Under the pieces are notes generated by a model. It ran no database searches. It saw only the letters and a list, made by a program, of their open reading frames with translations, and was not told the DNA's origin. From assembly GCF_011603255.1 (NCBI RefSeq), contig NZ_JAANCM010000003.1, positions 1 to 64,000 on the forward strand: 64,000 nt of DNA, read 5' to 3'. Of the stretch, positions 37,401 through 55,140 are shown one piece after another (position 1 is the stretch's first letter; each line of letters starts with the position of its first letter). The DNA comes from Ferranicluibacter rubi. GTDB lineage: Bacteria; Pseudomonadota; Alphaproteobacteria; Rhizobiales; Rhizobiaceae. Position numbers and translations under genes: made by a program.

Positions 37401-40400
37401 TGGAGGACAGGGCGGACAGCTGGGACGAGCTGAGGGCTGCGATCTGGACGCCGGTCAGGGCTTCCACCTGCCCTGTCTGCAGCGCTGCCAGCTGGCGCGT
37501 GGTCAAGCCGTGCACGCTGGATGCGCTAAGAGCGGCTATCTGGCTCGTGGAGAGCGTGGCGATCGTGGCGGTGGTGAGGCCGGCAATCGCAGCGGATGTA
37601 ATGGCCGCGATATCCCTCGTCGAGAAGGTGGCCATGTCGTCCGACTGGAGCCCCGACATCTGACCCGACGTCAGGTTCCCCACCTGGGCGCTGGTCAGCG
37701 CTTCCGCCTGGTCCGTCGTCAACACGGCGATGTGCTGCGAGGTGAAGCCGGAAATCGCCGCGCTCGAAAGCGCTGCGATCTGCGCCGTCGAGAGCACGGC
37801 GACATTGGAAGTTGCGAGGGCACCGATCTGGGCCGAGCTCAAGGCTGCGACCTGCCGGGTGGAGAGGTTGACGATCTGGTCTGCGCCAAGCGCCGTGATC
37901 TGGGCGGTCGAGAGACCACTGACCGCGCTGCTGCTCAGCGACCCGATGCGCTGCGAGGAGAACGCAACGATATCCGCGGTGCTAAACCCGGCCATCTGCT
38001 GCGACGTCATCCCGCCCAGTTGCGCGGAGGTCAGCGCCGCCAGTTGCAAATCGCTGAGGGCTGCGATCTGGTCGGTCCCGAGCGCGCCGATCGCAAGCGG
38101 TGTCATGGCAGCCACTTGCTCGGTGGAGAAGACCGAAATGTTCTCGGCGAGAGCGGCCATCTGCGCCGAGGTCAGCTGTTTGACCTGCGAAGCGGAAAGG
38201 GCGGCGAGTTGCCCGGTGGAGAAAGCCGACGCCTGCAGGGTCGAGAGACCGGCGAGCGCAGCCGTCCCCAGCGCTGCGACCTGCGCGGTGGAAAGGGCCG
38301 CGACGAGATCCGTGCCGATGCCCGAGAGTGCCTGACTGCCGAGTGCGGCGATGTTTGCCCTCGGGAAGGCGGCGATATCCGCGACGTCGAGTGCGGCCAT
38401 CTGCGTGACGCTCAGGGCCTTGACCTGCGCGACCGAAAGGGACGCGATCTGGCTTGCGGCCATCGCCGAGATCTGCGTGGTCGTCAGCCGCGCGATCGCA
38501 GCCGTGCTCAGGGCACCGATCTTGTCCGCGGTCAGACTTTCCATCACATCGCTACTGAGGCCGGTTATGGCTGTGGTGCTGATGGCAGCGAACTCCTCCT
38601 TGGAGAAGGTCGCGATATCATCGGCGCCGAGCGCGGCGAGCTGTGCTGCGGTCAGCACGCGAATCTGGACCGAAGACAGCGCCTCGGCCTGCGCCGTCCC
38701 GAGGGCCTCGATCTGCGCCGTCGTCAGGTTTGCGATGGCCGATGTTCCCAAGGCTGCGATCTTGGCGGTCCCAAGCGTCGCCACGACATCGGCGCTGAGG
38801 CCGGGCAGGGCGCGGCTGTTGATCGCGGCGACATTGGATACGGAAAATGCTGCGAGATCGCTCGCGTTGAGCACGGTGAAATGCTGCGCGGTCAGCCGTG
38901 CGACCTGGGTGGTGCTGAGAGACGCAAGATGGGCCGTGCTGAGGGCAGCCATTTGCGCCGTCGAGAGCACCGCCACCGAAGTCGCGCTCAGAGCAGCCAC
39001 TTGTGCCGTCGAGAGTGACCCGATTTGATCGGTCGACAGTGCCGCAATCTGCGTTGTCCGCAAAGCTGCGACCTGCGCGGTCGTCAGGGCGGCCAGCTGG
39101 CTTCCTGAAAGAGCTGCAATGTTGAGGCCCGGCACCGCCGCCGTGGTCATCGCCGCGATATCGTCCGTGGAGAGGGTGGCGATAGCCTCGTCGCTCAAGC
39201 CGGAGATTTGCACGGAGGTCAGGGCGGCCATCTGCGTTGGCGACAGGACTTCGATCTGCGCCGTGCCCATCGCGGCCAGCTGTCCCTTCGTCAGCCCGGC
39301 AACCTGTGTTGTCGTCAAGGCGGCAATCTGCGCTGTCGACAGTGTTGCGGCCACGTCCGTCGTCAGTCCGGACAGGGCCAATTTGGAGATTGCCCCGATA
39401 TTGTCGGTCGATAGAGAGGCGAGATCATCCGCACCGAGGGCAGAAAGCTGAGAAGCGCTCAGGGCCTTGATCTGATCGGAAGACAGCGCGGCAACCTGGC
39501 CCGTCTGCAGGGCCGCGATCTGGGCCAACGTCAGGCTGACGATGGCGCTCGTGCTCAGAGCCGCGATCTTGTCGCTCGACAGCGCGGCGAGAGTGTCCGT
39601 CTGCAAGCCTGAGATCGCCCTGTTGGTGATGGCGGTCATGTCCTCGCTGGAGAAGGTACCGATAGCCGCTGTATCGAGCGCGGCAAGCTGCGTCGCGGAG
39701 AGGGCTCGGATCTGTCCGGGTAACAGGGCCTCGACCTGCAGACTGCTCATGGCCGATAGCTGTAGGGTCGTCAGAGCGCCCGTCTGGCTGGAGGTGAACG
39801 CCGCGATCTGGCCTGTGGACAGATGACCGATGCCGTCGGTGCCCAGGCCCTTGATGGCGATCGTCGAAATGGCCGCTATGGCCGTAGACGAGAAGGAGGC
39901 CAGTGCGCTTTGCCCGAGGGCTGCAACCTGCGTCGAGTTCAGTGCCCGAACTTGCTGGGAGGTCAGCGCTCCCGTCTGTTCTGCGCTCAAGGTGCTGATT
40001 TGCAGCGTGCTGAGGCCTGCAATCGTCTGCGTTCCGAGCTTCGCGATCTGCGCCGTGGAGAGCGCCTCAAACTGCTCGGAGCCCCAACCGCTGATCTGCA
40101 ATGCACTGAGAGCGGCGATCTGCGACGGGAGCAGGGCCGGGAGGTGCGCGGTCGTCAAGGCGTTGACCTGGGTGCTCGTCAGCGCGGCGACGGTGGCGGT
40201 GCTGAGCGCAGCGAGCTGTGCGTTTGAAAGTGCTGCAACGACGTCGGTCTTCAGACCTCGCACGGCCTGGCCGCTGATGGCGGCGATATCGGTGGGGGAG
40301 AAATTGGCGATATCGTCAGCATCGAGGGCGGCCAGCTGGGTCGAGCTGAAGGCTTTGACCTGCACGGGTGTAAGGGCTTCCAGCTGCGCGCCGTTCAGCG

Positions 40401-41514
40401 CCTCGATCTGTCGGCTGCTCAGACTGGCGATGACGCTGGTCGCGAGCGCCGCAACGTGACCGGCCGTCAGCCCGGGGATGGCGTCCGGCTGAATTCCGGA
40501 AAATGTCTGCCCCGTAACGGCCGACATCGCAGACGTCGACAATGCGGCGATCTGGCTGGACGACAGGGCGGAGACCTGCGTAGAGGTGAGGCTCTTTACC
40601 TGCGTGAAGGACAAACCGCCGATCTGGTCCGAGGTCAGGGCGGCCATCTGGTCCGTCGTCAAGGCTGCGACGGATCTCGGTGCCAGCGCTGCGATCTGAA
40701 CGCTGTTGAAGGCCGCCAGCTGCCCTGTGCTCAACGTAGAAATCTGCGATGCGCCCAGAGCGGCGATCTGCGCAGGCGAGAGCGCGGAAAGCTTGTCGTT
40801 CGACAGGCCGGCAATACGCAAACCGGCGATCGACCGGATGGAGATCGCCGCGACGTCTTCGATGGAAAGAACGTCGACATCTTCCGTCTCGAGCGCCGCA
40901 AGCTGGAGCGAGCTGAGGGCGGAAACCTGTGACGAGGTGAACGATTCGACCTGATCCTTGCTCAGGGCGACGACCTGGTCGCTCGACAGGTTCGAGACGG
41001 CGCCGGTGTTCAGCGCTGAAATCTGGTCGTTCGTCAGCGAAGACAGCACCTCTGTCCGAAGCCCGCGAATGGCAGTGCCCGCGATCGCGTTCATGTCCTC
41101 CGTCGAAAAGGTCGCGAGGTCTTCCGCGCTCAGGGCGGCAATCTGGGCGCTGGTCAGCCCTCTGATCTGGGCCGGCGTCAGGGCTTCCGCCTGATCGGCC
41201 GTCAATGCACCGATCTGCGTCGTCGTCATTCCGCCGACCTGCGACGAGGACAGCGCCTCGATGCCGGTCTTGTGCAGGGCGCTGAGCTGATCGAGTGTCA
41301 GACCGACAATGGCCGCGCGGGAGATGGCGCTGAGCTGGTCGGTGCTGAGAATCTCCACGTCCTCGACGTCGAGGGCAGCGATCTGGGAGGAGGAGAGGGC
41401 CTTGATCTGCAGCGTGGAGAGGGAGCTGACATCTTCGGTCGTCCAGGCCGCAACGGCGGGTGTGGACAGGGACCGGATTTGCGTGACGCTCAGGCCGGAA
41501 GCAATTGTCGTCAT
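34489..41514 (-). CDS. Giant octapeptide-repeat protein 1 (2,341 residues)
   Basis: I do not recognise a named family. After six N-terminal residues the protein is about 285 tandem octads of consensus (A/G)-L-(S/T)-(S/T)-x-Q-(I/V)-x up to about residue 2295, followed by a 46-residue Ser/Ala-rich tail ending S-M-L-S-V. Ser and Thr occupy octad positions 3 and 4 almost throughout. Every 10-14 octads a variant pair of the type F-S-T-x-D-I-A-A-I-S, then A-I-x-G-L, recurs and defines a higher-order module. There is no N-terminal signal peptide, transmembrane helix or RTX nonapeptide. The start ATG 41514 has GGGGAT 8 bases upstream, and the N-terminus (G-L-S-V-T-Q-I-R-S-L) matches that of the second giant. 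The remaining 128 upstream codons are not repeat-like. Export route and function are unknown; surface or extracellular location is my guess. Confidence 0.8.
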   Translation of the reverse strand: MTTIASGLSVTQIRSLSTPAVAAWTTEDVSSLSTLQIKALSSSQIAALDVEDVEILSTDQLSAISRAAIVGLTLDQLSALHKTGIEALSSSQVGGMTTTQIGALTADQAEALTPAQIRGLTSAQIAALSAEDLATFSTEDMNAIAGTAIRGLRTEVLSSLTNDQISALNTGAVSNLSSDQVVALSKDQVESFTSSQVSALSSLQLAALETEDVDVLSIEDVAAISIRSIAGLRIAGLSNDKLSALSPAQIAALGASQISTLSTGQLAAFNSVQIAALAPRSVAALTTDQMAALTSDQIGGLSFTQVKSLTSTQVSALSSSQIAALSTSAMSAVTGQTFSGIQPDAIPGLTAGHVAALATSVIASLSSRQIEALNGAQLEALTPVQVKAFSSTQLAALDADDIANFSPTDIAAISGQAVRGLKTDVVAALSNAQLAALSTATVAALTSTQVNALTTAHLPALLPSQIAALSALQISGWGSEQFEALSTAQIAKLGTQTIAGLSTLQISTLSAEQTGALTSQQVRALNSTQVAALGQSALASFSSTAIAAISTIAIKGLGTDGIGHLSTGQIAAFTSSQTGALTTLQLSAMSSLQVEALLPGQIRALSATQLAALDTAAIGTFSSEDMTAITNRAISGLQTDTLAALSSDKIAALSTSAIVSLTLAQIAALQTGQVAALSSDQIKALSASQLSALGADDLASLSTDNIGAISKLALSGLTTDVAATLSTAQIAALTTTQVAGLTKGQLAAMGTAQIEVLSPTQMAALTSVQISGLSDEAIATLSTDDIAAMTTAAVPGLNIAALSGSQLAALTTAQVAALRTTQIAALSTDQIGSLSTAQVAALSATSVAVLSTAQMAALSTAHLASLSTTQVARLTAQHFTVLNASDLAAFSVSNVAAINSRALPGLSADVVATLGTAKIAALGTSAIANLTTAQIEALGTAQAEALSSVQIRVLTAAQLAALGADDIATFSKEEFAAISTTAITGLSSDVMESLTADKIGALSTAAIARLTTTQISAMAASQIASLSVAQVKALSVTQMAALDVADIAAFPRANIAALGSQALSGIGTDLVAALSTAQVAALGTAALAGLSTLQASAFSTGQLAALSASQVKQLTSAQMAALAENISVFSTEQVAAMTPLAIGALGTDQIAALSDLQLAALTSAQLGGMTSQQMAGFSTADIVAFSSQRIGSLSSSAVSGLSTAQITALGADQIVNLSTRQVAALSSAQIGALATSNVAVLSTAQIAALSSAAISGFTSQHIAVLTTDQAEALTSAQVGNLTSGQMSGLQSDDMATFSTRDIAAITSAAIAGLTTATIATLSTSQIAALSASSVHGLTTRQLAALQTGQVEALTGVQIAALSSSQLSALSSNAIATFTTREIAAIDAVAIVGLSSATIASLDPSKIAALSTAAVAALGSRQIDALSADQIAALTRAQLGALTSRQTAVLTSTDIQAILPKNISALSSDAMAGLTSEAVTALTNDQIAAISASGISGLSTSLIAHLSSTQVQALGTTQIAALSSRQVAVLAASDVAAMTATQIAALSAAGVAGLTTQQIGALSADQAEALNGVQIAALGSRQLAALGTGALARFSLTDIAAISASAIAGLSTATIATLSAEGVAALSTGSIAGLSSTQVAALSSDQVDGLTTAQVAALTSKQVAALGTAAVAALSLRQMAALSADGVAGFTATQIAALTSDQTAAFTPTQVAALSSAQVAALANEDLDGFSTADIAAFGSAAIPGLSTTAIASLSAEQVAALSASGVAGLSTDQIAALNSNQIEVLTTAQLGALSSRQASVLGTEDITLLSPAQIGALGTSGIAGLSTAAISILTIDQVKALTSVQMGTLSSQQLALLSTDALDNLGTAQLAAISSLAIPGLSTTAIASLSMNQIAALGTSAVAGLGTAQIATLSVDQAEALTASQIAVLDSRQLAALGADDIDRFTTNEIAAISSTAIAGLSSAMLSSLTQQQIAALSPGGISGLASTQIAALTSSQIEALSLAQVGALTSSQIGALKTSGIAGLSDSQLAALSIKGIAGISSGQAAALSAAQMQVLSTGQIAALSSEAISGLTTDSLATLKPAKIGALGSTAVKGLPTAFIAALSLTEIAGLGTGTVSGLTSGQLGALSAEQMDTLTTSQITALSQSGLAGLTTTHLATFSTQDIAAISLGAIKGLSTTIVSGLTSTSIAALTTGQVAALGYSQVSALTPAQIEMLTTSQVGAFGLMQAAALGSDDLVRLTPEHIIALGTGAISGLSTRAISGLTVAQAEAFTPAQINGMTSAQLQALTDVAINAQTTPSTSSARAASASETSSAQSASSATSEQPSESSASLIMSMLSV
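34630..41496 (-). repeat. 24-bp tandem repeat array encoding octapeptides (giant 1)
   Basis: The array runs from residue 7 to residue 2295 of the first giant protein. Octads are diverged at DNA level. The register slips exactly three times: five-residue units G-L-R-I-A (40810-40824) and G-L-N-I-A (39115-39129), and one seven-residue unit A-L-A-E-N-I-S (about 38131-38151). These slips add up to the observed length modulo 8 (2,289 residues = 286 x 8 + 1). Confidence 0.85.
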
Positions 41515-43486: not shown

Positions 43487-44701
<1,215 letters not shown>

Positions 44702-44741: not shown

Positions 44742-45998
44742 CTAGGCCGCCGCAAGGTTGGTGCGCATCAGCGCGTCGTAGCCGTCGATCAGTCGCTCGA
44801 GCGCCAGGCCGTTTTCCTGCGGCCCGAAGCTCAAGTGGCTCACCGTGAAGTCGGAATAGATGGCCGTCGGGCGGTTCAGGTAGTTGGGCAGATCGACCGT
44901 CAGCGCATATTCGTCGTCGCACTTCGGCAGAGCCATATGGACGAGGTCCTTGCCGAGCCAGGCGATGAAATTGATCGACTGGCGCTCGTGCCAGTCGATG
45001 ACGGGGCTCGGCAGGGGTAGCGACTTCTCGGTCTTGCCGAGGAAGTAGTCGTGCAGCCGCGTGGCGCGTTCTGCGCTCTGCCACAGGCTGCCGCCGAAGC
45101 CGCCAGGCGGGCGCTCGAACTGGCCGAGCGTGGCAGGCAGGGAGCCCGCTTCCTGCTGCCAGTAGGCGCAGACGCCATTGTTGACCACATTCGCCGACAC
45201 GATGAAGTAATGCGGATTGTCGCGACGAAACGCGATGAACTTACTGAGATTATCGAGATCGAGATAGACGACGTCGTCGTCGCACTTCAGGAAGACGGCG
45301 TCCGTGAACGCGCTGAGGCGCTTGGTGTAATAGCTGTAGGCCTGCCAGTAGGGCGTGCTCTCGTTCTCGTTGCCGACATAGCGGCGAACCGGGCTCTGGA
45401 CGTCGCAGAGCTCGAGGTCGGAGCCCCAGCCGCCGCGAACCATGATCGACGCCCCACCCGGCAGCTGAATGTCGGGCCAGGTGCCGACCATCACGCCGTT
45501 GACGTGGAGGGTCGGAACGCCTGTTTCATCCAGGTTCAGAACGACGTGATTGGCCAGACCCGGCGACAGAACGCCGGGTGTCGAGCGGGTCCAGATCAGC
45601 GGATGCGTGTCGCGCGAGAAGCTGGTGAGATCGGCCTCGGTGATGCGGCGAAGGGCGGAGTGGGTGTTGTTCCAGCCGCCGATGACGAGTTCGTAGGCAT
45701 CGCTCGTCTTGTCGTTCGGAACGATCGCGATGTGCAGGTCGCTCTGGATCTTTGCCGTAGTGCGGAACGACGAGAGACGGCTGACCGAGCCCTTATGCTG
45801 GTAGGAGGCGTTCGGGCCCATGAAGCGTACCGGACCGAATTCCTTCGTGACCCAGGCGCGATCCTCGGCCGAACGGGTGAAATCCCAGATATGCCATTCG
45901 TCGATGATCCCGGCTTCCAGCGCTTTCCTTATATACTGGGTCAGGATCTCCATCCGCTGCTGGCGGCCGGCAAAAGTGACCAAAATCACGGGGTTCAT
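44742..45998 (-). CDS. Putative glycosyltransferase with FAMeT-like insert
   Basis: A 418-residue protein. The N-terminus (V-I-L-V-T-F-A-G-R-Q-Q-R-M) and the central F-L-K-C-D-D-D-V-V-Y-L-D segment at about residue 237 fit a nucleotide-diphospho-sugar transferase with a D-D-D metal site. Between them, at about residues 70-205, is an inserted domain whose sequence (Y-E-L-V-I-G-G-W-N-N-T-H-S-A-L-R-R and a later V-R-G-G-W-G-S-D) I recognise as farnesoic acid O-methyltransferase-like (Methyltransf_FA). Despite its name, that domain is thought to be a beta-sandwich that may bind glycans. AGGA lies shortly before ATG 45998. It sits between GT41 and glf genes, so a galactofuranosyl or other sugar transfer is plausible but unproven. 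Confidence 0.68.
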   Translation of the reverse strand: MNPVILVTFAGRQQRMEILTQYIRKALEAGIIDEWHIWDFTRSAEDRAWVTKEFGPVRFMGPNASYQHKGSVSRLSSFRTTAKIQSDLHIAIVPNDKTSDAYELVIGGWNNTHSALRRITEADLTSFSRDTHPLIWTRSTPGVLSPGLANHVVLNLDETGVPTLHVNGVMVGTWPDIQLPGGASIMVRGGWGSDLELCDVQSPVRRYVGNENESTPYWQAYSYYTKRLSAFTDAVFLKCDDDVVYLDLDNLSKFIAFRRDNPHYFIVSANVVNNGVCAYWQQEAGSLPATLGQFERPPGGFGGSLWQSAERATRLHDYFLGKTEKSLPLPSPVIDWHERQSINFIAWLGKDLVHMALPKCDDEYALTVDLPNYLNRPTAIYSDFTVSHLSFGPQENGLALERLIDGYDALMRTNLAAA

Positions 45999-46102: not shown

Positions 46103-48151
46103 TCAGTCGGTATCGGTCCAGAAGCGGGTGTCCCGGGCGATCGGCGCATAAGCGTGCCGCTGCGCGAGTTCCTGGCGGTAACGCTCCCGGTAGCTCGCGT
46201 CAGTCTCGAATTCGACCGGGTCGGACAGGAAATCGACGCCGACCTCGTAGTAGATGTCGAGATTGTCGAGGCGCGGCACGGGGATCTCGCCGCGCTCGCC
46301 TTCGCCCTGCATCTGCCAGTACAGTTCCTCGAGACGGCGCACCAGCGCCGGGATGTCGCGCAGCGCGCAGGTCTCCCGCTGCGCCTGCAGCGAACGGCGC
46401 ACGGCCAGCAGGCTCTCCGGGTCGCGGGCATAGGCAATCGCCTTGGCGACATAGGCATCCGGCGTTTCGCAGATCATTTCGGGAATGCCGGCTGCGGACA
46501 GGATGCTGCTGCAGAAGCGGGACGCGAAGCCCTTGCCGCGAAGCGTCAGGACCGGCAGGCCCATGGTCACGGCGTCGGCCGCCGTGGAATGCGCACCGTA
46601 GGGGAACGTGTCGAGGAAGAGATCGGCTACGCCGATGCGGGCGAGGTGGAAGGCGTTGGGAGCCTTGGGCGCGAAGATGAGGCGATCCGGCTCGACGCCA
46701 TGGTCGATCGCCAGCTGCCGAAGCCGCTGGTTGACGGGCTCCGAGGCACCGAGCAGCCAGAGCACGCTGCCGGGAACGGCGGCAAGGATGGCCATCCAGC
46801 GCGTGAAGCAGGCAGCGGTCGTCTTCTGCGAGCCATTGAAACAGGCAAACACGAAGGCATCTTCCGGCAGGCCGGCCTCTTCGCGTGTCGGCTTGGCCGC
46901 AATCTTGCGCTTCCGGTCGACCGGCTGGTTGCAGGGAATGCGCAGGACCTTTTCGGTGTAGTAAAGTTCGTTTTCCGGCGGGATGATCTGTTCGTCGGCG
47001 ATGATATATTGATGAACCGGGCTCGCCATCGTTCCGGGATAGCCACAGAAGTTCACGATCACAGGCGCCGGGCGATAGGCGAAGATCTTGGTGCGCGCGT
47101 GTTTGGTGTAGCCGTTGACGTCCACGAGGATGTCGATCTCGTCGGCGAGAATCTGCTTGGCGGCATCGAGATCGCTGAGCGCGGCGATGTCATGCCAGTG
47201 ATCGACGGCCGTCTGAATACGGGTCTGGGTGGCGTCGTTGGTACGCGGCTCGCCGCAATAGTAGGCGAAGACCTCGACGCGCGTCTTGTCGTGCAGCTCC
47301 AGCACTTCGCTGAGCGCGAAGCCGACGGCATGGTCGCGGAGGTCCGAGGAGACGTAGCCGATCCGCAGGCGTTCCGTCGTGCCGGCCTTTTTGGCAGGCG
47401 CCGGGCGCAGCATGTCGCGGGCATTGATACGGCCGACGAGATGCTTGTTGTAGCGATAGGCCTTTGCCATCTGGAAGATGGGGTCGTCTGTGTAGCAGGC
47501 GAGGGGCAGCGGCGAAAAGGCTTCAAGCAGCTGCCGGTTCGTCACATATTCCGACGTGGTGACGATCGGCCACTTGCACTGGTGCTGGCGCGTCGACAGC
47601 CAATGCTGCGCCGCCTCGGTGCGGTCCGGACGAAGCTCGATCGCCTGCCACAGGATGGCTTCGGCATCCTCAAGCAGGCCAACACCTTCCATGACGCGGC
47701 CGATATGCTGGAGCGCCATCAGGCGATAGCCGATCTTTTCCGGCGTGATATCCTGCGTCGCGGCGACATATTGCTGCCACTGCTGCACGGCCTGGGCGTT
47801 CAGACCGCTGTCCTCGAAGGTGCGGCCGAGATTGATGCGCGCCTGGCCCATCAGCGGCGAAATCTTGAGGCTGGCCTGGAGCGCGTTGATGGCGCCGGGC
47901 ATATCGTCCAGACCCCGCAACGTGACCGAGTAGTTGAAGTAGGCGAGATGCAGGACCGGGCTGTTGTCGTTGAATGCGATCCAGGTACTGTAGAGCTTTG
48001 CGGCCGCGGCCTTCTGGTTGCTCGCGTTCAGCTCCTCGGCGATCTGGAAGAGCTCCAGAAGGGAGAGTTGCTGTTGGCGTGCACGTTCCAGGGCGGCGGC
48101 AAGCATCGATTGGTGTGCTGAGGCAAAGGTATTATGAATAACCATGGACAT
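46103..48151 (-). CDS. TPR-GT41 glycosyltransferase (SPINDLY/OGT-like)
   Basis: A protein of about 682 residues. Residues about 25-200 form tetratricopeptide-like helical repeats. The rest is a family 41 glycosyltransferase, the family of O-GlcNAc transferase, SPINDLY and HMW1C. Hallmarks are R-I-G-Y-V-S-S-D-L-R-D-H (about residue 270), V-D-V-N-G-Y-T, Y-I-I-A-D-E-Q-I-I-P-P-E, the donor-site lysine in F-N-G-S-Q-K-T-T, and D-T-F-P-Y-G-A-H-S-T-A-A-D-A. Relatives glycosylate Ser/Thr (or Asn) of cytoplasmic or adhesin proteins. It is transcribed divergently from giant gene 2. Start is uncertain: GTG 48154, ATG 48151 or ATG 48145, none with a clear Shine-Dalgarno. Target and sugar are not known. 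Confidence 0.88.
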   Translation of the reverse strand: MSMVIHNTFASAHQSMLAAALERARQQQLSLLELFQIAEELNASNQKAAAAKLYSTWIAFNDNSPVLHLAYFNYSVTLRGLDDMPGAINALQASLKISPLMGQARINLGRTFEDSGLNAQAVQQWQQYVAATQDITPEKIGYRLMALQHIGRVMEGVGLLEDAEAILWQAIELRPDRTEAAQHWLSTRQHQCKWPIVTTSEYVTNRQLLEAFSPLPLACYTDDPIFQMAKAYRYNKHLVGRINARDMLRPAPAKKAGTTERLRIGYVSSDLRDHAVGFALSEVLELHDKTRVEVFAYYCGEPRTNDATQTRIQTAVDHWHDIAALSDLDAAKQILADEIDILVDVNGYTKHARTKIFAYRPAPVIVNFCGYPGTMASPVHQYIIADEQIIPPENELYYTEKVLRIPCNQPVDRKRKIAAKPTREEAGLPEDAFVFACFNGSQKTTAACFTRWMAILAAVPGSVLWLLGASEPVNQRLRQLAIDHGVEPDRLIFAPKAPNAFHLARIGVADLFLDTFPYGAHSTAADAVTMGLPVLTLRGKGFASRFCSSILSAAGIPEMICETPDAYVAKAIAYARDPESLLAVRRSLQAQRETCALRDIPALVRRLEELYWQMQGEGERGEIPVPRLDNLDIYYEVGVDFLSDPVEFETDASYRERYRQELAQRHAYAPIARDTRFWTDTD

Positions 48152-48780
48152 CACATTGATCGTGGGCCTGACGGCCGCATTGCGGAGACGGTACTGCCTC
48201 GACCCTTAGCGGCGTTGCCTTGCCTTGAGCTTGCGGCCGCAGCGCACAACGACGCGGAAGCAGCTTAACCGGCCGAATGTTCTTGCTTGTCGGGCACGTG
48301 TCGGAAGACGTACCTGTATCGGCTTGAAAGGCGCCACCTCCGCGCAAGTTACCCGATGTAACGAGGGAACGGACGTTTAAACTATTTCTTTAGGTTGCGT
48401 TTTAACCGAAAATTAGAAGGTGACGCGATACAAATTGGGACGTGGACAGATCGGTATCCCCTTTCGTGGGATACGGGGGCGTCCGCAGGGGAATTCACAG
48501 ACTTCGAATTTATTGATACTTCCAGGTGTGGGAAGCAGAGTCTCTAACTCTGCATGCATGATGCCGCCCCCACGTCAGGCTCTTATGAGCCATGTTCCAG
48601 ATATTCTTTCCGCTCGAATGAGCGCCACCCTGTGCCTTGCCCGATGGAGCAGGCAGCAGCCATGGCGATCGTTTGAAGATGCCCGGCGCATCATAGGCTC
48701 TGTGACGCGAGGCTACGCCTTCCGCCGCAGGCATCGGAGAGGAAAGAATATTAATCCTTGAACGATGAAGGCGCGCACCC
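48152..48780. promoter_or_regulatory. Divergent intergenic region between GT41 gene and giant 2
   Basis: There are 629 bases without a credible gene, the longest such gap in the window. It holds an AT-rich patch (about 48370-48420) with the palindrome GTTTAAAC (48375-48382) and the dyad GGTT-N7-AACC (48393-48407). There is also a hairpin GCAGAGT-CTCTA-ACTCTGC (48535-48553) in the leader of the second giant. The long leader suggests regulation of giant 2 at promoter and RNA level. No -35/-10 pair stands out. Confidence 0.45.
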
Positions 48781-51700
48781 ATGACCTCGATTGTATCTTC
48801 TCTCAGCGTTAAACAGATTCAGTCTCTCAATACCTCCACGATCGCGTCGTTCACGACCAGCGATGTCGGTGCTCTGACTTCGCTGCAGATTGCTGCATTT
48901 TCCTCTAATCAGATTGCGGCTTTCGCTACGGAAGACCTGGCAGCGTTCAACTCGACACAGCTTCGCGCGGTTTCCGCTGCAGCTGTAACGGGTCTGACGG
49001 CCGGGCAGCTCGCCGTTCTCGACAGCAGCAAGCTTGCAACGCTGGTGTCCAGCCAGGTCGCGGCATTGTCATCCGCTCAGGTTGCCTCTCTTTCCTCCGG
49101 CCAGCTCGACGGTCTGACGACGGCTCAGCTCGGCGCACTGAGCGCCGGCGCACTTGCCGGCTTTGCAACCGAGGACATGGCGACCATCTCGTCGACGGAA
49201 ATCTCGGCCCTCAGCGCACGGTCGATTGCAACGCTCTCCACCTCGAACTTCGCGGCTCTGACCTCCACGCAGCTGAGCGGCCTGACGACGGCACAGGCCG
49301 GCGCACTCGGCACAGCCCAGATCAAGGTGCTCTCGACGGCCCAGATCGACGGTCTCACGACAGCACAGGTCAAGGTTCTGACGGCGACCCAGGTCGGCGC
49401 TCTCTCCACGGACGGTCTGGCTTCGCTCTCGACCGATCAGGTCGCAGCCCTGAGCACGATCGTGATCGCCTCCCTGTCCTCCACGCAGATCGGCGCTCTG
49501 AGCAGCGTGCAGCTCGGTGCCTTCGACACCAAGCAGCTGGCTGCCCTGCAGCCTGCAGCCGCTGCCGGCCTTGAAACGGCCGACATGGCGGCGATCTCGT
49601 CGACGGCAATCTCCGCCCTCAGCGGCAGGGTTCTTTCGAACCTCTCGACGGCGAACATCGCGGCCCTGACCTCCACGCAGCTCGGGGGTCTGACGACCGC
49701 ACAGGCCGGCGCTCTCGGCACGGCCCAGATCAAGGTGCTTTCGACGGCCCAGATCGACGGCTTGACGACGGCGCAGGTCAAGGTCCTGACAGCGGTACAG
49801 GTCGGCGCTCTCTCGACCGATGGCCTGGCCTCGCTCTCGACCGATCAGGTCGCGGTGCTGAGCACGGCGGCGGTCGCCGCACTGTCCTCCACGCAGCTCG
49901 GTGCTCTGAGCAGCGTGCAGCTCGGTGCTTTCGATACCAAGCAGCTTGCGGCCCTGTCGGCTGCAGCCGTGGCCGGCCTCGAAACAGCCGACATGGCAAC
50001 GATCTCGTCGACGGAAATCTCGGCTCTCAGCGCCAATGTTTTGTCGAAGCTCTCGACGGACAACATCGCAGCCCTAACGTCCACGCAGCTCGGCGGTCTC
50101 ACGACCGCACAGGCCGGTGCGCTCAGCACGGCGCAGATCAAGGTGCTCTCGACGGCCCAGATCGACGGTCTGACGACGGCGCAGGTCAAGGTTCTGACGG
50201 CGGCCCAGGTCGGCGCGCTCACCACGGATGGTGTCGCCTCGCTCTCGACCGATCAGGTCGCAGCGCTGGACGTCAAGACGATCGCTGCTCTTTCGACCGC
50301 CCAGCTGAGCGCCATGAGCTCCGCCCAGATCGGCGCGCTCAATGCTGCACAGATCGCGGAACTCGGTTCGGAAGATCTGGCGGTCCTCGCATCCGAAGAT
50401 CTCGCGGCCTTCTCGACCAGCGAGATCGCCGTGCTCAGCGCAAAGGCCATCACCGGCCTGTCGTCGAGCGTGATTGCAACGCTTGCCACCGACAAGGTCG
50501 CAGCACTCAGCTCGGCCGCCGTTGGCGCGCTGAACTCCACCCAGATCGCTGCGCTGACGACGGCCCAGATCGGTGCCCTTGATACCAAGCAGCTGGCAGC
50601 CCTGACGTCCACGGCCGTTGCCGGCCTGGAAACCGCCGACATCGCGGCTATCTCCTCGACCGAGATTTCCGCCCTCAACACCAAGACGCTCGCCAGCCTT
50701 TCCACGGCGAACTTCGCTGCCCTGGCATCCACCCAGCTGGCCGGCCTGACGACGGCACAGGCCGGCGCCTTGACCGCTGCCCAGATGCGCACCCTGAGCA
50801 CCGCCCAGATCGACGGCCTGACAACGGCGCAGGTCAAGGTCCTGACGGTGGCCCAGGTTGGCGCTCTGACAACGGACGGCCTGGCTTCGCTCTCGACCGA
50901 TCAGGTCGCAGTGCTGAGCACGGCCGTGGTCGCCGCGCTGTCCTCGACACAGATCGGCGCTCTGACCAGCGTGCAGATCGGTGCCTTCGATACCAAGCAG
51001 CTTGCAGCCCTATCGGCTACAGCCGTCGCCGGCCTCGAAACGGCCGACATGGCAACGATCTCGTCAACGGAAATCTCGGCTCTCAGCGCCAATGTGTTGT
51101 CGAAGCTCTCGACGGACAACATCGCGGCCCTGACGTCCACGCAGCTCGGTGGTCTGACGACCGCACAGGCCGGCGCTCTCGGTACGGCCCAGATCAAGGT
51201 GCTCTCGACGGCACAGATCGACGGCCTCACGACGGCACAGGTCAAGGTCCTGACGGCGGTACAGGTGGGTGCTTTCTCCACGGATGGTCTGGCCTCTCTC
51301 TCGACCGATCAGGTCGCAGTGCTGAGCACCGCGGCAATCGCCTCCCTGTCCTCCACGCAGATCGGTGCACTGAGCAGCGTGCAGCTCGATGCCTTCGACA
51401 CCAAGCAGCTGGCGGCCCTGTCGGCCGCAGCCGTCGCCGGCCTTGAAACCGCCGACATGGCAACGATCTCTTCGACGGAAATCTCGGCCCTCAGCGCCAA
51501 GGTTCTGTCGAGCCTCTCCACGACCACCTTCGCGGCTCTGACCTCCACACAGCTCGGCGGTCTGACGACGGCACAGGCCGGTGCGCTCGGCACGGCTCAG
51601 ATCAAGGTGCTTTCGACGGCCCAGATCGACGGCCTGACGACGGCGCAGGTCAAGGTTTTGACGGCGGTACAGGTCGGTGCTCTGACGACCGATGGCTTGG

Positions 51701-54700
51701 CCTCGCTCTCGACCGATCAGGTCGCAGCCCTGAACACGGCGGCCATTGCCTCCCTGACCTCGACGCAGATCGGCGCTCTGAGCAGCGTGCAGATCGGTGC
51801 TTTCGATACCAAGCAGCTTGCGGCCCTGTCGCCTGCGGCCATCGCCGGCCTCGAAACGGCCGACATGGCGACGATCTCGTCGACGGAAATTTCGGCTCTC
51901 AACGCCAGAGTTCTGTCGAACCTCTCGACGGCGAACATCGCAGCCCTGACCTCCACCCAGCTCGGCGGTCTGACGACGGCACAGGCTGGTGCGCTCGGCA
52001 CAGCCCAGATCAAGGTGCTTTCGACGGCACAGATCGACGGCCTCACGACGGCGCAGGTCAAGGTTCTGACGGCAGCACAGGTCGGCGCTCTCTCCACGGA
52101 CGGTCTGGCTTCGCTCTCGACCGATCAGGTCGCAGCCCTGAGCACGACCGCGATCGCCGCCCTGTCCTCGACCCAGATCGGCGCTCTGAGCAGCGTGCAG
52201 CTCGATGCCTTCGACACCAAGCAGCTGGCTGCCCTGCAGCCCGCAGCCGTCGCCGGCCTTGAAACGGCCGACATGGCGGCGATCTCGTCGACGGAAATCT
52301 CGGCTCTCAACGTCAGGGTTCTGTCGAACCTCTCGACGGCAAACATCGCGGCCCTGACCTCCACGCAGCTCGGCGGTCTGACGACGGTTCAGGCCGGCGC
52401 TCTCGGCACAGCCCAGATCAAGGTGCTCTCGACGGCTCAGATCGACGGTCTGACGACGGCGCAGGTCAAGGTTCTTACAGCGGCTCAGGTCGGTGCTCTC
52501 ACCACGGACGGTCTGGCCTCGCTCTCGACCGATCAGGTCGCAGCCCTGAACACGGCCGTAATCGCCTCGCTGACTTCGACGCAGCTCGGTGCTCTGAGCA
52601 GCGTGCAGCTCGGTGCTTTCGATACCAAGCAGCTTGCGGCCCTGTCGGCTGCAGCCGTGGCCGGCCTCGAAACAGCCGACATGGCAACGATCTCGTCGAC
52701 GGAAATCTCGGCTCTCAGCGCCAATGTTTTGTCGAAGCTCTCGACGGACAACATCGCAGCCCTGACGTCCACGCAGCTCGGCGGTCTCACGACCGCACAG
52801 GCCGGTGCGCTCAGCACGGCGCAGATCAAGGTGCTCTCGACGGCCCAGATCGACGGTCTGACGACGGCGCAGGTCAAGGTTCTGACGGCGGCCCAGGTCG
52901 GCGCGCTCACCACGGATGGTGTCGCCTCGCTCTCGACCGATCAGGTCGCAGCGCTGGACGTCAAGACGATCGCTGCTCTTTCGACCGCCCAGCTGAGCGC
53001 CATGAGCTCCGCCCAGATCGGCGCGCTCAATGCTGCACAGATCGCGGAACTCGGTTCGGAAGATCTGGCGGTCCTCGCATCCGAAGATCTCGCGGCCTTC
53101 TCGACCAGCGAGATCGCCGTGCTCAGCGCAAAGGCCATCACCGGCCTGTCGTCGAGCGTGATTGCAACGCTTGCCACCGACAAGGTCGCAGCACTCAGCT
53201 CGGCCGCCGTGGGCGCGCTGAACTCCACCCAGATCGCTGCACTGACGACGGCCCAGATCGGTGCCCTCGATACCAAGCAGCTGGCAGCCCTGACGTCCAC
53301 GGCCGTTGCCGGCCTGGAAACCGCTGACATCGCGGCCATCTCCTCGACCGAGATCTCCGCCCTCAACACCAAGACGCTCGCCAGCCTGTCCACGGCGAAC
53401 TTCGCTGCCCTGGCGTCCACCCAGCTGGCCGGCCTGACGACGGCACAGGCCGGCGCCTTGACCGCTGCCCAGATGCGCACCCTGAGCACCGCCCAGATCG
53501 ACGGCCTGACAACGGCACAGGTCAAGGTCCTGACGGTGGCACAGGTTGGCGCTCTGACAACGGATGGTCTTGCTTCGCTCTCGACCGATCAGGTCGCAGT
53601 GCTGAGCACGGCCGTGGTCGCCGCGCTGTCCTCGACACAGATCGGCGCTCTGACCAGCGTGCAGATCGGTGCCTTCGACACCAAGCAGCTGGCGGCGCTT
53701 TCGCCGGCAGCCGTCGCCGGCCTTGAAACGGCCGACATGGCAACGATCTCGTCGACGGAAATCTCGGCCCTCAACGCTAATGTGTTGTCGAAGCTCTCGA
53801 CGGACAACATCGCGGCCCTGACGTCCACGCAGCTCGGTGGTCTGACGACCGCACAGGCTGGCGCTCTCGGTACGGCCCAGATCAAGGTGCTCTCGACGGC
53901 CCAGATCGACGGCTTGACGACGGCGCAGGTCAAGGTCCTGACGGCGGTACAGGTCGGTGCCCTGACAACGGATGGTCTGGCTTCGCTCTCGACCGATCAG
54001 GTCGCAGTGTTGAGCACGGCCGTGGTCGCCGCGCTGTCCTCCACGCAGATCGGCGCTCTGACCAGCGTGCAGCTCGATGCCTTCGATACCAAGCAGCTGG
54101 CGGCCCTGTCGCCGGCAGCCGCAGCCGGCCTCGAAACGGCAGACATGGCAACGATCTCGTCGACGGAAATCTCGGCTCTCAACGCGAAGGTGTTGTCGAA
54201 CCTCTCGACGGCGAACATCGCGGCCCTGACCTCCACCCAGCTCGGCGGTCTGACGACGGCACAGGCCGGTGCCCTCGGTACGGCCCAGATCAAGGTGCTT
54301 TCGACGGCCCAGATCGACGGCCTGACGACGGCGGCGGTCAAGGTCCTGACGGCGGCTCAGGTCGGCGCCCTGACAACGGATGGTCTGGCTTCACTCTCCA
54401 CCGATCAGGTCGCAGCCCTGAACACGGCGGCGATCGCCTCCCTCTCCTCCACGCAGATCGGCGCTCTGAGCAGCGTGCAGCTCGATGCCTTCGATACCAA
54501 GCAGCTGGCGGCGCTTTCGTCGGCAGCGGCTGCAGGCCTTGAAACCGTCGACATGGCAACGATCTCATCGACGGAAATCTCGGCTCTCAGCGCCAGGGTG
54601 TTGTCGAGCCTCTCGACGGCGAACATCGCGGCCCTGACGTCTACCCAGTTGAGCGGTCTGACGACGGCACAGGCCAGCGCTCTCGGCACGGCTCAGATCA

Positions 54701-55140
54701 AGGTGCTTTCGACGGCCCAGATCGACGGCCTCACGACGGCGCAGGTCAAGGTTCTGACGGCGGCACAGGTCGGCGCTCTGACGACCGACGGTCTGGCCTC
54801 GCTCTCGACCGATCAGGTCGCAGCCCTGGGTACCGGCGCTGTTGCCGCGCTCTCGACCGCGCAGCTGGATGCCATGTCGTCCGACCAGATCGGTGCGCTG
54901 ACAGCTACCCAGGTGTCTGTGCTTGGCTCGGCAGCGATCGCTGCTCTGTCCTCGCAGGACCTCCTGGCCTTCTCGACGAGCGATATCGCTGCCATCAACC
55001 TCCGGGCACTGGCAGGGCTCTCGACGGCGGATATCGGCAACCTGTCGACCACGCAGGTACGGGCCTTCACGACGACCCAGGTCGCCGCGTTCGACACGGA
55101 GCAGATGAACGCTATCGTCATCGCCTACCAGCAGATCTAA
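48781..55140 (+). CDS. Giant octapeptide-repeat protein 2 (2,119 residues)
   Basis: Paralogue of the giant at 34489. The product is six residues, then 264 octads in unbroken register, then one residue before the stop (6 + 264 x 8 + 1 = 2,119). Typical octads read A-L-S-T-A-Q-I-x or G-L-T-T-A-Q-V-x. The first about 20 octads and the last about 20 are diverse; the middle is highly homogeneous, built of modules of 17 octads. There is no signal peptide, membrane helix or C-terminal Ser-rich tail, unlike giant 1; it ends V-I-A-Y-Q-Q-I. GAAGG lies 9 bases before ATG 48781. I do not recognise a named family. The Thr/Ser-rich repeats beside a GT41 enzyme suggest a glycosylated structural or surface protein; this is inference. 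Confidence 0.82.
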   Translation: MTSIVSSLSVKQIQSLNTSTIASFTTSDVGALTSLQIAAFSSNQIAAFATEDLAAFNSTQLRAVSAAAVTGLTAGQLAVLDSSKLATLVSSQVAALSSAQVASLSSGQLDGLTTAQLGALSAGALAGFATEDMATISSTEISALSARSIATLSTSNFAALTSTQLSGLTTAQAGALGTAQIKVLSTAQIDGLTTAQVKVLTATQVGALSTDGLASLSTDQVAALSTIVIASLSSTQIGALSSVQLGAFDTKQLAALQPAAAAGLETADMAAISSTAISALSGRVLSNLSTANIAALTSTQLGGLTTAQAGALGTAQIKVLSTAQIDGLTTAQVKVLTAVQVGALSTDGLASLSTDQVAVLSTAAVAALSSTQLGALSSVQLGAFDTKQLAALSAAAVAGLETADMATISSTEISALSANVLSKLSTDNIAALTSTQLGGLTTAQAGALSTAQIKVLSTAQIDGLTTAQVKVLTAAQVGALTTDGVASLSTDQVAALDVKTIAALSTAQLSAMSSAQIGALNAAQIAELGSEDLAVLASEDLAAFSTSEIAVLSAKAITGLSSSVIATLATDKVAALSSAAVGALNSTQIAALTTAQIGALDTKQLAALTSTAVAGLETADIAAISSTEISALNTKTLASLSTANFAALASTQLAGLTTAQAGALTAAQMRTLSTAQIDGLTTAQVKVLTVAQVGALTTDGLASLSTDQVAVLSTAVVAALSSTQIGALTSVQIGAFDTKQLAALSATAVAGLETADMATISSTEISALSANVLSKLSTDNIAALTSTQLGGLTTAQAGALGTAQIKVLSTAQIDGLTTAQVKVLTAVQVGAFSTDGLASLSTDQVAVLSTAAIASLSSTQIGALSSVQLDAFDTKQLAALSAAAVAGLETADMATISSTEISALSAKVLSSLSTTTFAALTSTQLGGLTTAQAGALGTAQIKVLSTAQIDGLTTAQVKVLTAVQVGALTTDGLASLSTDQVAALNTAAIASLTSTQIGALSSVQIGAFDTKQLAALSPAAIAGLETADMATISSTEISALNARVLSNLSTANIAALTSTQLGGLTTAQAGALGTAQIKVLSTAQIDGLTTAQVKVLTAAQVGALSTDGLASLSTDQVAALSTTAIAALSSTQIGALSSVQLDAFDTKQLAALQPAAVAGLETADMAAISSTEISALNVRVLSNLSTANIAALTSTQLGGLTTVQAGALGTAQIKVLSTAQIDGLTTAQVKVLTAAQVGALTTDGLASLSTDQVAALNTAVIASLTSTQLGALSSVQLGAFDTKQLAALSAAAVAGLETADMATISSTEISALSANVLSKLSTDNIAALTSTQLGGLTTAQAGALSTAQIKVLSTAQIDGLTTAQVKVLTAAQVGALTTDGVASLSTDQVAALDVKTIAALSTAQLSAMSSAQIGALNAAQIAELGSEDLAVLASEDLAAFSTSEIAVLSAKAITGLSSSVIATLATDKVAALSSAAVGALNSTQIAALTTAQIGALDTKQLAALTSTAVAGLETADIAAISSTEISALNTKTLASLSTANFAALASTQLAGLTTAQAGALTAAQMRTLSTAQIDGLTTAQVKVLTVAQVGALTTDGLASLSTDQVAVLSTAVVAALSSTQIGALTSVQIGAFDTKQLAALSPAAVAGLETADMATISSTEISALNANVLSKLSTDNIAALTSTQLGGLTTAQAGALGTAQIKVLSTAQIDGLTTAQVKVLTAVQVGALTTDGLASLSTDQVAVLSTAVVAALSSTQIGALTSVQLDAFDTKQLAALSPAAAAGLETADMATISSTEISALNAKVLSNLSTANIAALTSTQLGGLTTAQAGALGTAQIKVLSTAQIDGLTTAAVKVLTAAQVGALTTDGLASLSTDQVAALNTAAIASLSSTQIGALSSVQLDAFDTKQLAALSSAAAAGLETVDMATISSTEISALSARVLSSLSTANIAALTSTQLSGLTTAQASALGTAQIKVLSTAQIDGLTTAQVKVLTAAQVGALTTDGLASLSTDQVAALGTGAVAALSTAQLDAMSSDQIGALTATQVSVLGSAAIAALSSQDLLAFSTSDIAAINLRALAGLSTADIGNLSTTQVRAFTTTQVAAFDTEQMNAIVIAYQQI
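49891..50990 (+). repeat. Segmental duplication, copy A
   Basis: About 1.1 kb nearly identical to 52579-53678 (offset 2,688 bases, equal to 112 octads). I count roughly 14 base differences, all of which look synonymous. It contains one of the two 27-octad modules. Confidence 0.88.
52579..53678 (+). repeat. Segmental duplication, copy B
   Basis: Second copy of the 1.1-kb block at 49891-50990. Similarity drops at both ends exactly where flanking octads change, which marks the copied or gene-converted tract. Confidence 0.88.

What the first reader, a model, noticed from the sequence alone, without database searches (positions are those of the whole stretch)
49279..54840. Higher-order 17-octad (408-bp) modules, 13 copies, two enlarged to 27 octads
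The landmark octad recurs at 408-base steps, with two steps of 648 bases (27 octads = 17 + 10). Each module repeats the same ordered set of octads. This is a hierarchical repeat like satellite DNA, inside a coding sequence. The 17-octad module may reflect a structural repeat, for example a full superhelical turn, or a functional binding unit.
Basis: seen in the sequence. Interest (0 to 1): 0.7.

Follow-up and report, generated by a model that had tools for sequence, protein, structure and literature searches.

The report
Modular screw-protein gene beside sugar-attaching enzyme
A soil-type bacterium carries a giant protein built from 264 eight-residue helical steps, copied in blocks of 17 steps that probably make whole turns of a screw, next to an enzyme that probably coats it with sugars; the pairing recurs in other bacteria and can be tested.

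Summary
ORF A (48781-55140, +, 2119 aa) is 264 gap-free octads. The landmark octad recurs 13 times, with ten steps of 408 bp and two of 648 bp. A is an ALTTAQ-repeat protein (PF20080, 77 stretches). A diverged paralog B lies at 34489-41514 (-).

AlphaFold2 predicts one short helix per octad (pLDDT 92.7 and 93.1). In 16 family members strong repeat distances fall near multiples of 3.4 octads (142 of 173 lags against 30% by chance). So 17 octads is probably about five superhelical turns, not one. Blocks 2688 bp apart are homogenised within strains, while the 13-module plan is shared with a second species.

The main new lead is the neighbour. A GT41 (O-GlcNAc-transferase-like) gene lies within 5 kb of an ALTTAQ gene in 17 of 20 genomes examined, and is mostly of a separate GT41 lineage. 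Cereibacter and Pseudomonas relatives also have type I secretion genes nearby. Best explanation: a secreted, O-glycosylated alpha-screw rod whose modules are copied in whole-turn units. Glycosylation and export are inferred, not shown.

The parts
48781..55140 (+). ORF A: 2119-aa ALTTAQ octad-repeat protein (264 octads)
   Evidence: PF20080, 77 stretches, E=0; octad listing
48781..49284 (+). N-terminal 21 octads before the first landmark
49285..50100 (+). modules 1-2 (17 octads each)
50101..50748 (+). module 3, 27 octads; extra 10 octads at 50269-50508
50749..52788 (+). modules 4-8 (17 octads each)
52789..53436 (+). module 9, 27 octads; extra 10 octads at 52957-53196
53437..54660 (+). modules 10-12 (17 octads each)
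54661..55140 (+). module 13 (first 7 octads) and C-terminal tail, which resembles the extra 10 octads
49891..50522 (+). homogenised tract, identical to the copy 2688 bp downstream (52579-53210) except for one base
   Evidence: identical runs of 185 and 446 bp
34489..41514 (-). paralog B: ALTTAQ protein, 2341 aa, 289 parsed octads, strongest lags 10, 27 and 17 octads, Ser-rich C-terminal tail
46103..48154 (-). GT41 (O-GlcNAc-transferase-like) glycosyltransferase with weak TPR matches, divergent from ORF A
   Evidence: PF13844 E=1.4e-68; Xanthomonas OGT 2jlb E=1.8e-74
44742..45998 (-). 418-aa protein with Methyltransf_FA domain; relatives in two other genera's loci; probable sugar-chain enzyme (inference)
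43487..44644 (-). UDP-galactopyranose mutase (GLF)
   Evidence: PF03275 E=6.8e-78; present in the ALTTAQ loci L024-L027 and L032

Best explanation
ORF A encodes a long, rod-like alpha-solenoid. Each octad (S/T-S/T-x-Q-I/V/L-x-x-L) is one short capped helix, and about 3.4 octads make one turn of the screw. The gene grows and shrinks by copying blocks of 7, 10 or 17 octads (about 2, 3 and 5 turns), because only near-whole-turn blocks keep the following helices facing the same way; unequal recombination or gene conversion between blocks keeps them alike. Ser/Thr at octad positions 1 and 2 probably lie on the outside and are O-glycosylated in the cytoplasm by the adjacent GT41 enzyme, with sugar supply by the neighbouring UDP-galactopyranose mutase cluster. 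The coated rod is then probably exported by a type I secretion system, as a surface or matrix fibre. Shown: octads, modules, homogenisation, recurrent GT41 linkage. Predicted: the short-helix solenoid. Inferred: turn number, glycosylation, export, extracellular role.
For: AlphaFold2 models of aa 1-560 (pLDDT 92.7) and of two modules (272 aa, pLDDT 93.1, pTM 0.83) give one helix of 4-6 residues per octad, 70 in 70 octads and 34 in 34. The solved chain 9zem ('HeliScrew4') matches by sequence at E=1.6e-14. Strong lags lie within 0.5 octad of multiples of 3.4 in 142 of 173 cases over 16 proteins (chance 30%). Enrichment falls with distance from a whole turn (15 proteins; Spearman -0.71 at 3.40; most extreme of 500 permutations over a coarser grid of periods -0.53). 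Other taxa use other dominant lengths, 24 octads and 31, also near multiples of 3.4. One to four pairs of modules 2688 bp apart are 99-100% identical within each of three genomes, while their best matches between genomes are 89-97%; pN/pS is 0.11 between the window and G101. GT41 lies within 5 kb of an ALTTAQ gene in 17 of 20 genomes. Among 41 relatives GT41 is present in 11 of 11 ALTTAQ carriers and 5 of 30 others (Fisher p=1.4e-6 by genome, 1.3e-4 by genus, not corrected for relatedness). Of 14 control genomes the one with ALTTAQ (Caulobacter) is one of two with GT41. The GT41 tree separates linked from unlinked genes with few exceptions. Type I secretion genes lie near the ALTTAQ genes of Cereibacter sphaeroides and two Pseudomonas plasmids, and one Pseudomonas ALTTAQ protein carries a FrpC-like self-processing stretch (6sjw, E=1.5e-36). 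Ser+Thr is 26% of A, and there is no Cys.
Against: No coordinates were available, so the twist was not measured; armadillo mapping gives medians of 3.51-3.64, not 3.40, and the toy backbone model favours 2.4-3.2 for its best-packed solutions. Lags add up (7+10=17), so they are not independent. In 4 of 16 proteins another period scored as well or better, and one (Pseudomonas sp. DTU) had only 14 of 29 strong lags on the grid. Three ALTTAQ carriers (G020, G062, G262) had no GT41 hit at the cut-offs used, and a Shinella plasmid shows none annotated within 10 kb. In G017 a second GT41 about 3.7 kb from the ALTTAQ gene belongs to the other GT41 group. No type I secretion gene was recognised among the neighbours of ORF A; homologues of the Pseudomonas exporter lie elsewhere in the genome. 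No glycan or secretion was demonstrated.
Confidence: 0.58

Rival explanations
1. Neutral tandem duplication. Blocks of 10 and 17 octads simply happened to duplicate and were spread by recombination; the lengths have no structural meaning.
For: 7, 10, 17, 27 and 44 are sums and differences of two numbers; homogenisation between blocks is evident.
Against: Distant relatives with other dominant module lengths (24, 31) fall near the same 3.4 grid, though with more exceptions (9 of 14 and 7 of 10 lags for L030 and L031); lags 4, 5, 6, 11-13 and 21-23 are depleted in the pool of 12; low pN/pS.
Confidence: 0.2
2. A cytoplasmic or non-glycosylated scaffold that binds peptides or proteins along an armadillo-like groove, one binding unit per module; the GT41 linkage reflects a shared polysaccharide island.
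For: No type I secretion gene recognised next to A; armadillo-type proteins are among the best structural matches (Z up to 7.4); GLF and other sugar genes are nearby.
Against: The GT41 link holds within about 4 kb across Alpha- and Gammaproteobacteria with different surroundings; Z under 8 may be only a common arrangement (note).
Confidence: 0.16
3. Assembly artefact: collapsed or misplaced near-identical repeats.
For: The gene runs into contig ends in three of five genus relatives that carry it (G094, G102, G103) and holds a run of unknown bases in L010.
Against: The same 13-module plan is found in a second species on a 1.17-Mb contig of a genome in about 7 contigs, and the standard modules of the window differ from one another by 4-19%.
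Confidence: 0.06

Closest known systems
ALTTAQ repeat family, Pfam PF20080
   Same: 77 stretches in A; same octad motif
   Different: The model is a 38-residue unit; my searches found no paper on it, and I saw no description of 17-octad modules or of a GT41 link
HeliScrew4 (PDB 9zem)
   Same: 120-residue chain of octads of the LTPEQIAAL type; E=1.6e-14 to A and 8e-17 to the Pseudomonas homologue
   Different: Only its sequence match and name were seen; no paper found; at about 15 octads it is shorter than one 17-octad module
FlmG, flagellin O-glycosyltransferase of Caulobacter crescentus (PMC7591256: listing, start of abstract and passages seen)
   Same: Soluble O-glycosyltransferase that modifies an exported protein in the cytoplasm
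   Different: Substrate is flagellin; the term GT41 does not occur in its text, and it was not compared with the linked GT41s here
Bacterial OGT orthologues (Xanthomonas 2jlb; Thermobaculum, PMC4683255, passages seen)
   Same: GT41 catalytic domain with TPRs
   Different: No modified protein was identified for the Thermobaculum enzyme; here a candidate substrate sits next door
HMW1 adhesin with its HMW1C glycosyltransferase (PMC3012730: listing and start of abstract seen)
   Same: Large secreted protein modified by a dedicated glycosyltransferase; HMW1C-like chains match this GT41 weakly (3q3e E=5.1e-6)
   Different: HMW1 is N-glycosylated and exported by two-partner secretion; here a predicted alpha-helical octad rod and an OGT-like enzyme

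Membership tests
ALTTAQ repeat (PF20080) | Profile match over the curated cut-off | tested here: met
   1203.6 bits against 26.4; 77 stretches
HeliScrew-like octad alpha-solenoid | Octad sequence similarity to 9zem | tested here: met
   E=1.6e-14, aa 405-511
HeliScrew-like octad alpha-solenoid | Same solved fold and twist | tested here: inconclusive
   9zem not among the 50 rows shown of each structure search; no coordinates at hand
Leucine-rich repeats (PF23952) | Strand-containing repeat unit | tested here: not met
   Score over the cut-off for the whole protein but 0 stretches pass on their own; both models, covering aa 1-560 and 929-1200, all-helical
Ice nucleation protein | Match to an ice-nucleation profile (the Cereibacter homologue is annotated with that name) | tested here: not met
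   No such family among 9 Pfam and 2 NCBIfam rows for A at E<=1, nor for the Cereibacter protein in Pfam at 0.001
Armadillo repeat protein | Structural match well above the common background | tested here: inconclusive
   Z up to 7.4 with rmsd 7.7 over 262 residues
GT41 glycosyltransferase (46103-48154) | Glyco_transf_41 profile and OGT similarity | tested here: met
GT41 glycosyltransferase (46103-48154) | Transfers sugar to Ser/Thr of ORF A | not testable with these tools
   needs mass spectrometry or in vitro assay
Type I secretion substrate (ORF A) | Adjacent secretion genes | tested here: not met
   none recognised among the neighbours scanned; present near the Cereibacter and Pseudomonas genes
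Type I secretion substrate (ORF A) | C-terminal signal recognised by the exporter | not testable with these tools
   no NCBIfam model of that kind hit A; a signal can be shown only by experiment

The most novel reading that the evidence does not exclude
ALTTAQ proteins are the dedicated substrates of a largely separate lineage of bacterial GT41 O-glycosyltransferases: sugar-coated alpha-helical screw rods exported by type I secretion. Their evolution is quantised, because copying is tolerated only in blocks that make near-whole turns (7, 10, 17, 24, 27, 31 octads; about 3.4 octads per turn), so module length reads out superhelical geometry from DNA.
Probability: 0.43. Interest if true: 0.8.

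Novelty: new variant of a known kind. Interest (0 to 1): 0.62.

Why it matters
The functions of bacterial OGT-like GT41 enzymes were described in 2015 as largely unexplored, and no modified protein could be identified for the Thermobaculum enzyme (PMC4683255, passages). A gene pair that recurs from Rhizobiaceae to Pseudomonas names a concrete candidate substrate and makes the question testable, for instance in Cereibacter sphaeroides 2.4.1. If module lengths follow the superhelical turn, these genes are a natural record of which insertions a solenoid tolerates, which is useful for protein design.

Tried and rejected
Ice-nucleation and LRR readings: rejected. 'Haem utilisation' is only an annotated name of the Pseudomonas homologue; nothing seen supports it. 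'One module is one turn': rejected in favour of about five turns. Strain variation in module number: the window genome and G101 both have 13 modules; the extra length in L010 is a stretch of unknown residues, not a module. Profile hits such as PRTRC_C, TetR_HI_0893_C and Sigma70_r4_2 to ALTTAQ proteins have 0 stretches that pass on their own and were taken as composition hits.

A toy backbone model with ideal helices and sampled turns gave compact solenoids mostly of 2-4.5 octads per turn, the best-packed nearer 2.4-3.2. In its top solutions positions 4, 5 and 8 lie inside and 1, 2, 3, 6 and 7 outside, but it does not single out 3.4. Structural searches gave no strong match (Foldseek best E=2.2e-4; VIA best Z 7.7 and 7.4), so turn mapping by armadillo alignment is soft. 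In one search I used 12 armadillo rows that I had picked and that left out some with higher values; one search repeats it with 41 armadillo-type rows (medians 3.64 by span, 3.51 by aligned residues; range 3.29-4.16) and 13 engineered rows (3.63 and 3.56). A search of the phage collection with ORF A found nothing. The viral structure library gave hits of low TM-score only. Neighbour clustering was blurred by antisense frames of the repeats and was used only as a hint.

Rows dropped: the pooled tests use 12, 16 and 15 proteins. Near-identical orthologues of A and B, the N-containing L032 and the later L050, L052 and L053 were left out; the Pseudomonas sp. DTU protein (14 of 29 strong lags on the grid) was dropped. 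In one search the best overall period was 4.84, 5.45, 4.85 and 4.81 for 4 of 16 proteins, with 3.41-3.43 equal or nearly equal in three of them. In the GT41 tree the 19 'far' rows were chosen by me; one of them (G017) in fact lies about 3.7 kb from an ALTTAQ gene and groups with the far genes. Counting it as near raises the label changes from 2 to 3 (shuffled mean 13.7, none of 500 as low). The near GT41s of G017 and one of G296 were not in the tree because only fragments were fetched; the rows G296a and G392a lie about 6 kb from their ALTTAQ genes, behind a second GT41.

Literature: ten searches. None listed a paper that by its title concerns ALTTAQ or HeliScrew proteins. The seven hits each hold the string 'PF20080' once, in papers unrelated by title.
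Full report
What is there. ORF A (48781-55140, +) encodes 2119 residues, of which 2112 are 264 consecutive octads. Position 8 is Leu in 224 of 264 octads, position 5 is Ile/Leu/Val in 230, position 4 is Gln in 147, and positions 1 and 2 are Ser/Thr in 195 and 217. The landmark octad recurs 13 times with ten steps of 17 octads and two of 27.

Family. Pfam calls it ALTTAQ_rpt (PF20080). The other eight Pfam rows for A have no stretch that passes on its own, and the two NCBIfam rows are far below their cut-offs. The one strong sequence match among solved structures is 9zem, 'HeliScrew4'. A second ALTTAQ gene, B (34489-41514, -, 289 parsed octads), lies in the same window; its strongest lags are 10, 27 and 17 octads.

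Structure. AlphaFold2 on aa 1-560 (8 alignment rows) and on two modules (10 rows) gives high confidence and one helix of 4-6 residues per octad, mostly at positions 2-6. Coordinates could not be read. Alignments to armadillo-type proteins, whose unit I take from general knowledge as 42 residues and one solenoid turn, equate that turn with 3.5-3.65 octads (medians over 41 rows and 13).

Module lengths. For each protein I compared octads at every lag with octad-order shuffles. The 12 proteins share a pooled best period of 3.40 octads. In one search, 142 of 173 lags with z>=4 in 16 proteins lie within 0.5 octad of a multiple of 3.4, where 30% is expected. Enrichment declines with the angular misfit (15 proteins: mean 0.76 at 0-11 degrees, 0.63 at 11-27, 0.41 at 27-42, and below zero in each wider bin). 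Single-turn lags 3 and 4, which misfit by 0.4-0.6 octad, are not enriched in the pool. Relatives in other families show dominant lags of 24 octads (L030, L052) and 31 octads (L053). Caution: lags add up, so 7 and 10 could generate most of the rest, and 4 of 16 proteins had another period as good or better.

Evolution. The G101 orthologue (L035; another species of the genus) has the same 13 modules in the same order of lengths, at 92.5% DNA identity. Within the window genome modules 3 and 9 are identical. In G101 pairs 1/7, 2/8, 3/9 and 4/10 are 99-100% identical, and in L010 pairs 3/9 and 4/10 are 100%. Between genomes the best matches of the window's modules 1-4 and 7-10 are 89-97%. Blocks are thus homogenised within genomes at a 112-octad offset. 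Between the window and G101 pN/pS is 0.11, so the protein is under purifying selection. The 10 extra octads of the long modules best match the C-terminal tail (43 of 80).

Neighbours. The divergent gene next to A is a GT41 glycosyltransferase; a 418-aa Methyltransf_FA protein and UDP-galactopyranose mutase lie beyond it. I examined 20 genomes with an ALTTAQ match: G000, G101, G102, G103, G104, G094, G003, G011, G014, G017, G020, G045, G057, G062, G075, G115, G262, G296, G324 and G392. They were found at E cut-offs of 1e-12 to 3e-10 or 1e-9, plus G020 at 1e-7, and are not a complete census. A GT41 gene lies within 5 kb of an ALTTAQ gene on the same contig in 17. G020 and G062 have no GT41 hit at E<=1e-10, and G262 is not among the GT41-positive genomes (E<=1e-15). 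In named records GT41 adjoins the ALTTAQ gene in Cereibacter sphaeroides 2.4.1 pA (annotated 'O-linked acetylglucosamine transferase'), Pseudomonas asturiensis, Pseudomonas sp. DTU and Rhodovastum; none is annotated within 10 kb of the Shinella HZN7 gene. Rhizobium daejeonense also has it, but that record was found with a query covering GT41, so it is a biased example. Co-occurrence in 41 relatives is 11 of 11 against 5 of 30 (Fisher, not corrected for relatedness). Among 14 control genomes ALTTAQ rings only in Caulobacter, and GT41 only in Caulobacter and Synechococcus; where they lie in Caulobacter was not seen.

GT41 tree. With 22 linked rows (within about 6 kb) and 19 unlinked rows chosen by me, 17 linked form one branch (100/100), 18 unlinked another (99/100), 5 linked a weak branch (85/47), and one unlinked row (G115, very long branch) stands apart. 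One row labelled unlinked, G017, is in fact about 3.7 kb from an ALTTAQ gene and groups with the unlinked ones; with it relabelled the label needs 3 changes against a shuffled mean of 13.7. The linked enzymes are thus mostly, not wholly, a lineage of their own.

Export. A and its relatives start without an obvious signal peptide (by eye; no tool run). Type I secretion ABC/HlyD genes (and TolC in Pseudomonas) lie near the ALTTAQ genes in Cereibacter and both Pseudomonas plasmids. The Pseudomonas sp. DTU protein matches the FrpC chain 6sjw at 2405-2567, which I recall as the self-processing module of RTX proteins exported this way. In the window genome the best match to the Pseudomonas exporter lies on another contig (42% identity over query residues 11-559).

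Judgement. The sequence facts are firm. The short-helix solenoid is a confident prediction. The whole-turn reading is well supported statistically but needs coordinates. Glycosylation by the linked GT41 is the most useful inference, because functions of bacterial OGT-like enzymes are little explored (PMC4683255, passages). Export and surface role are plausible by analogy.

Noticed in passing
34489-41514 (-): Second, diverged ALTTAQ gene (B) with strongest lags 10, 27 and 17 octads and a Ser-rich C-terminal tail; the two genes flank the glycosylation cluster.
   Followed up: partly
41990-43468 (+): MFS drug-efflux-like transporter between B and the sugar cluster, present in the loci of four genus relatives (family).
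   Followed up: no
44742-45998 (-): 418-aa protein with a Methyltransf_FA domain inside what looks by eye like a glycosyltransferase; relatives in the ALTTAQ loci of G057 and G075.
   Followed up: no
L053 1-14444: In G324 two ALTTAQ reading frames lie on either side of a GT41 gene; the longer one has strict 31-octad modules (z 47.9 at lag 31).
   Followed up: partly
L048 9101-17167: Pseudomonas ALTTAQ protein ends with a FrpC-like stretch and a tail unlike the octads.
   Followed up: partly
L046 14058-21349: The Pseudomonas asturiensis ALTTAQ region is annotated as three consecutive reading frames, perhaps one gene broken or mis-assembled.
   Followed up: no
50253-50837, 52941-53525 (-): Antisense open frames of equal length (194 aa) inside ORF A, 2688 bp apart; taken as by-products of the homogenised blocks.
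   Followed up: no
G017, contig C2:167407-168465: A second GT41 on the other side of the ALTTAQ gene that belongs to the unlinked GT41 group.
   Followed up: partly
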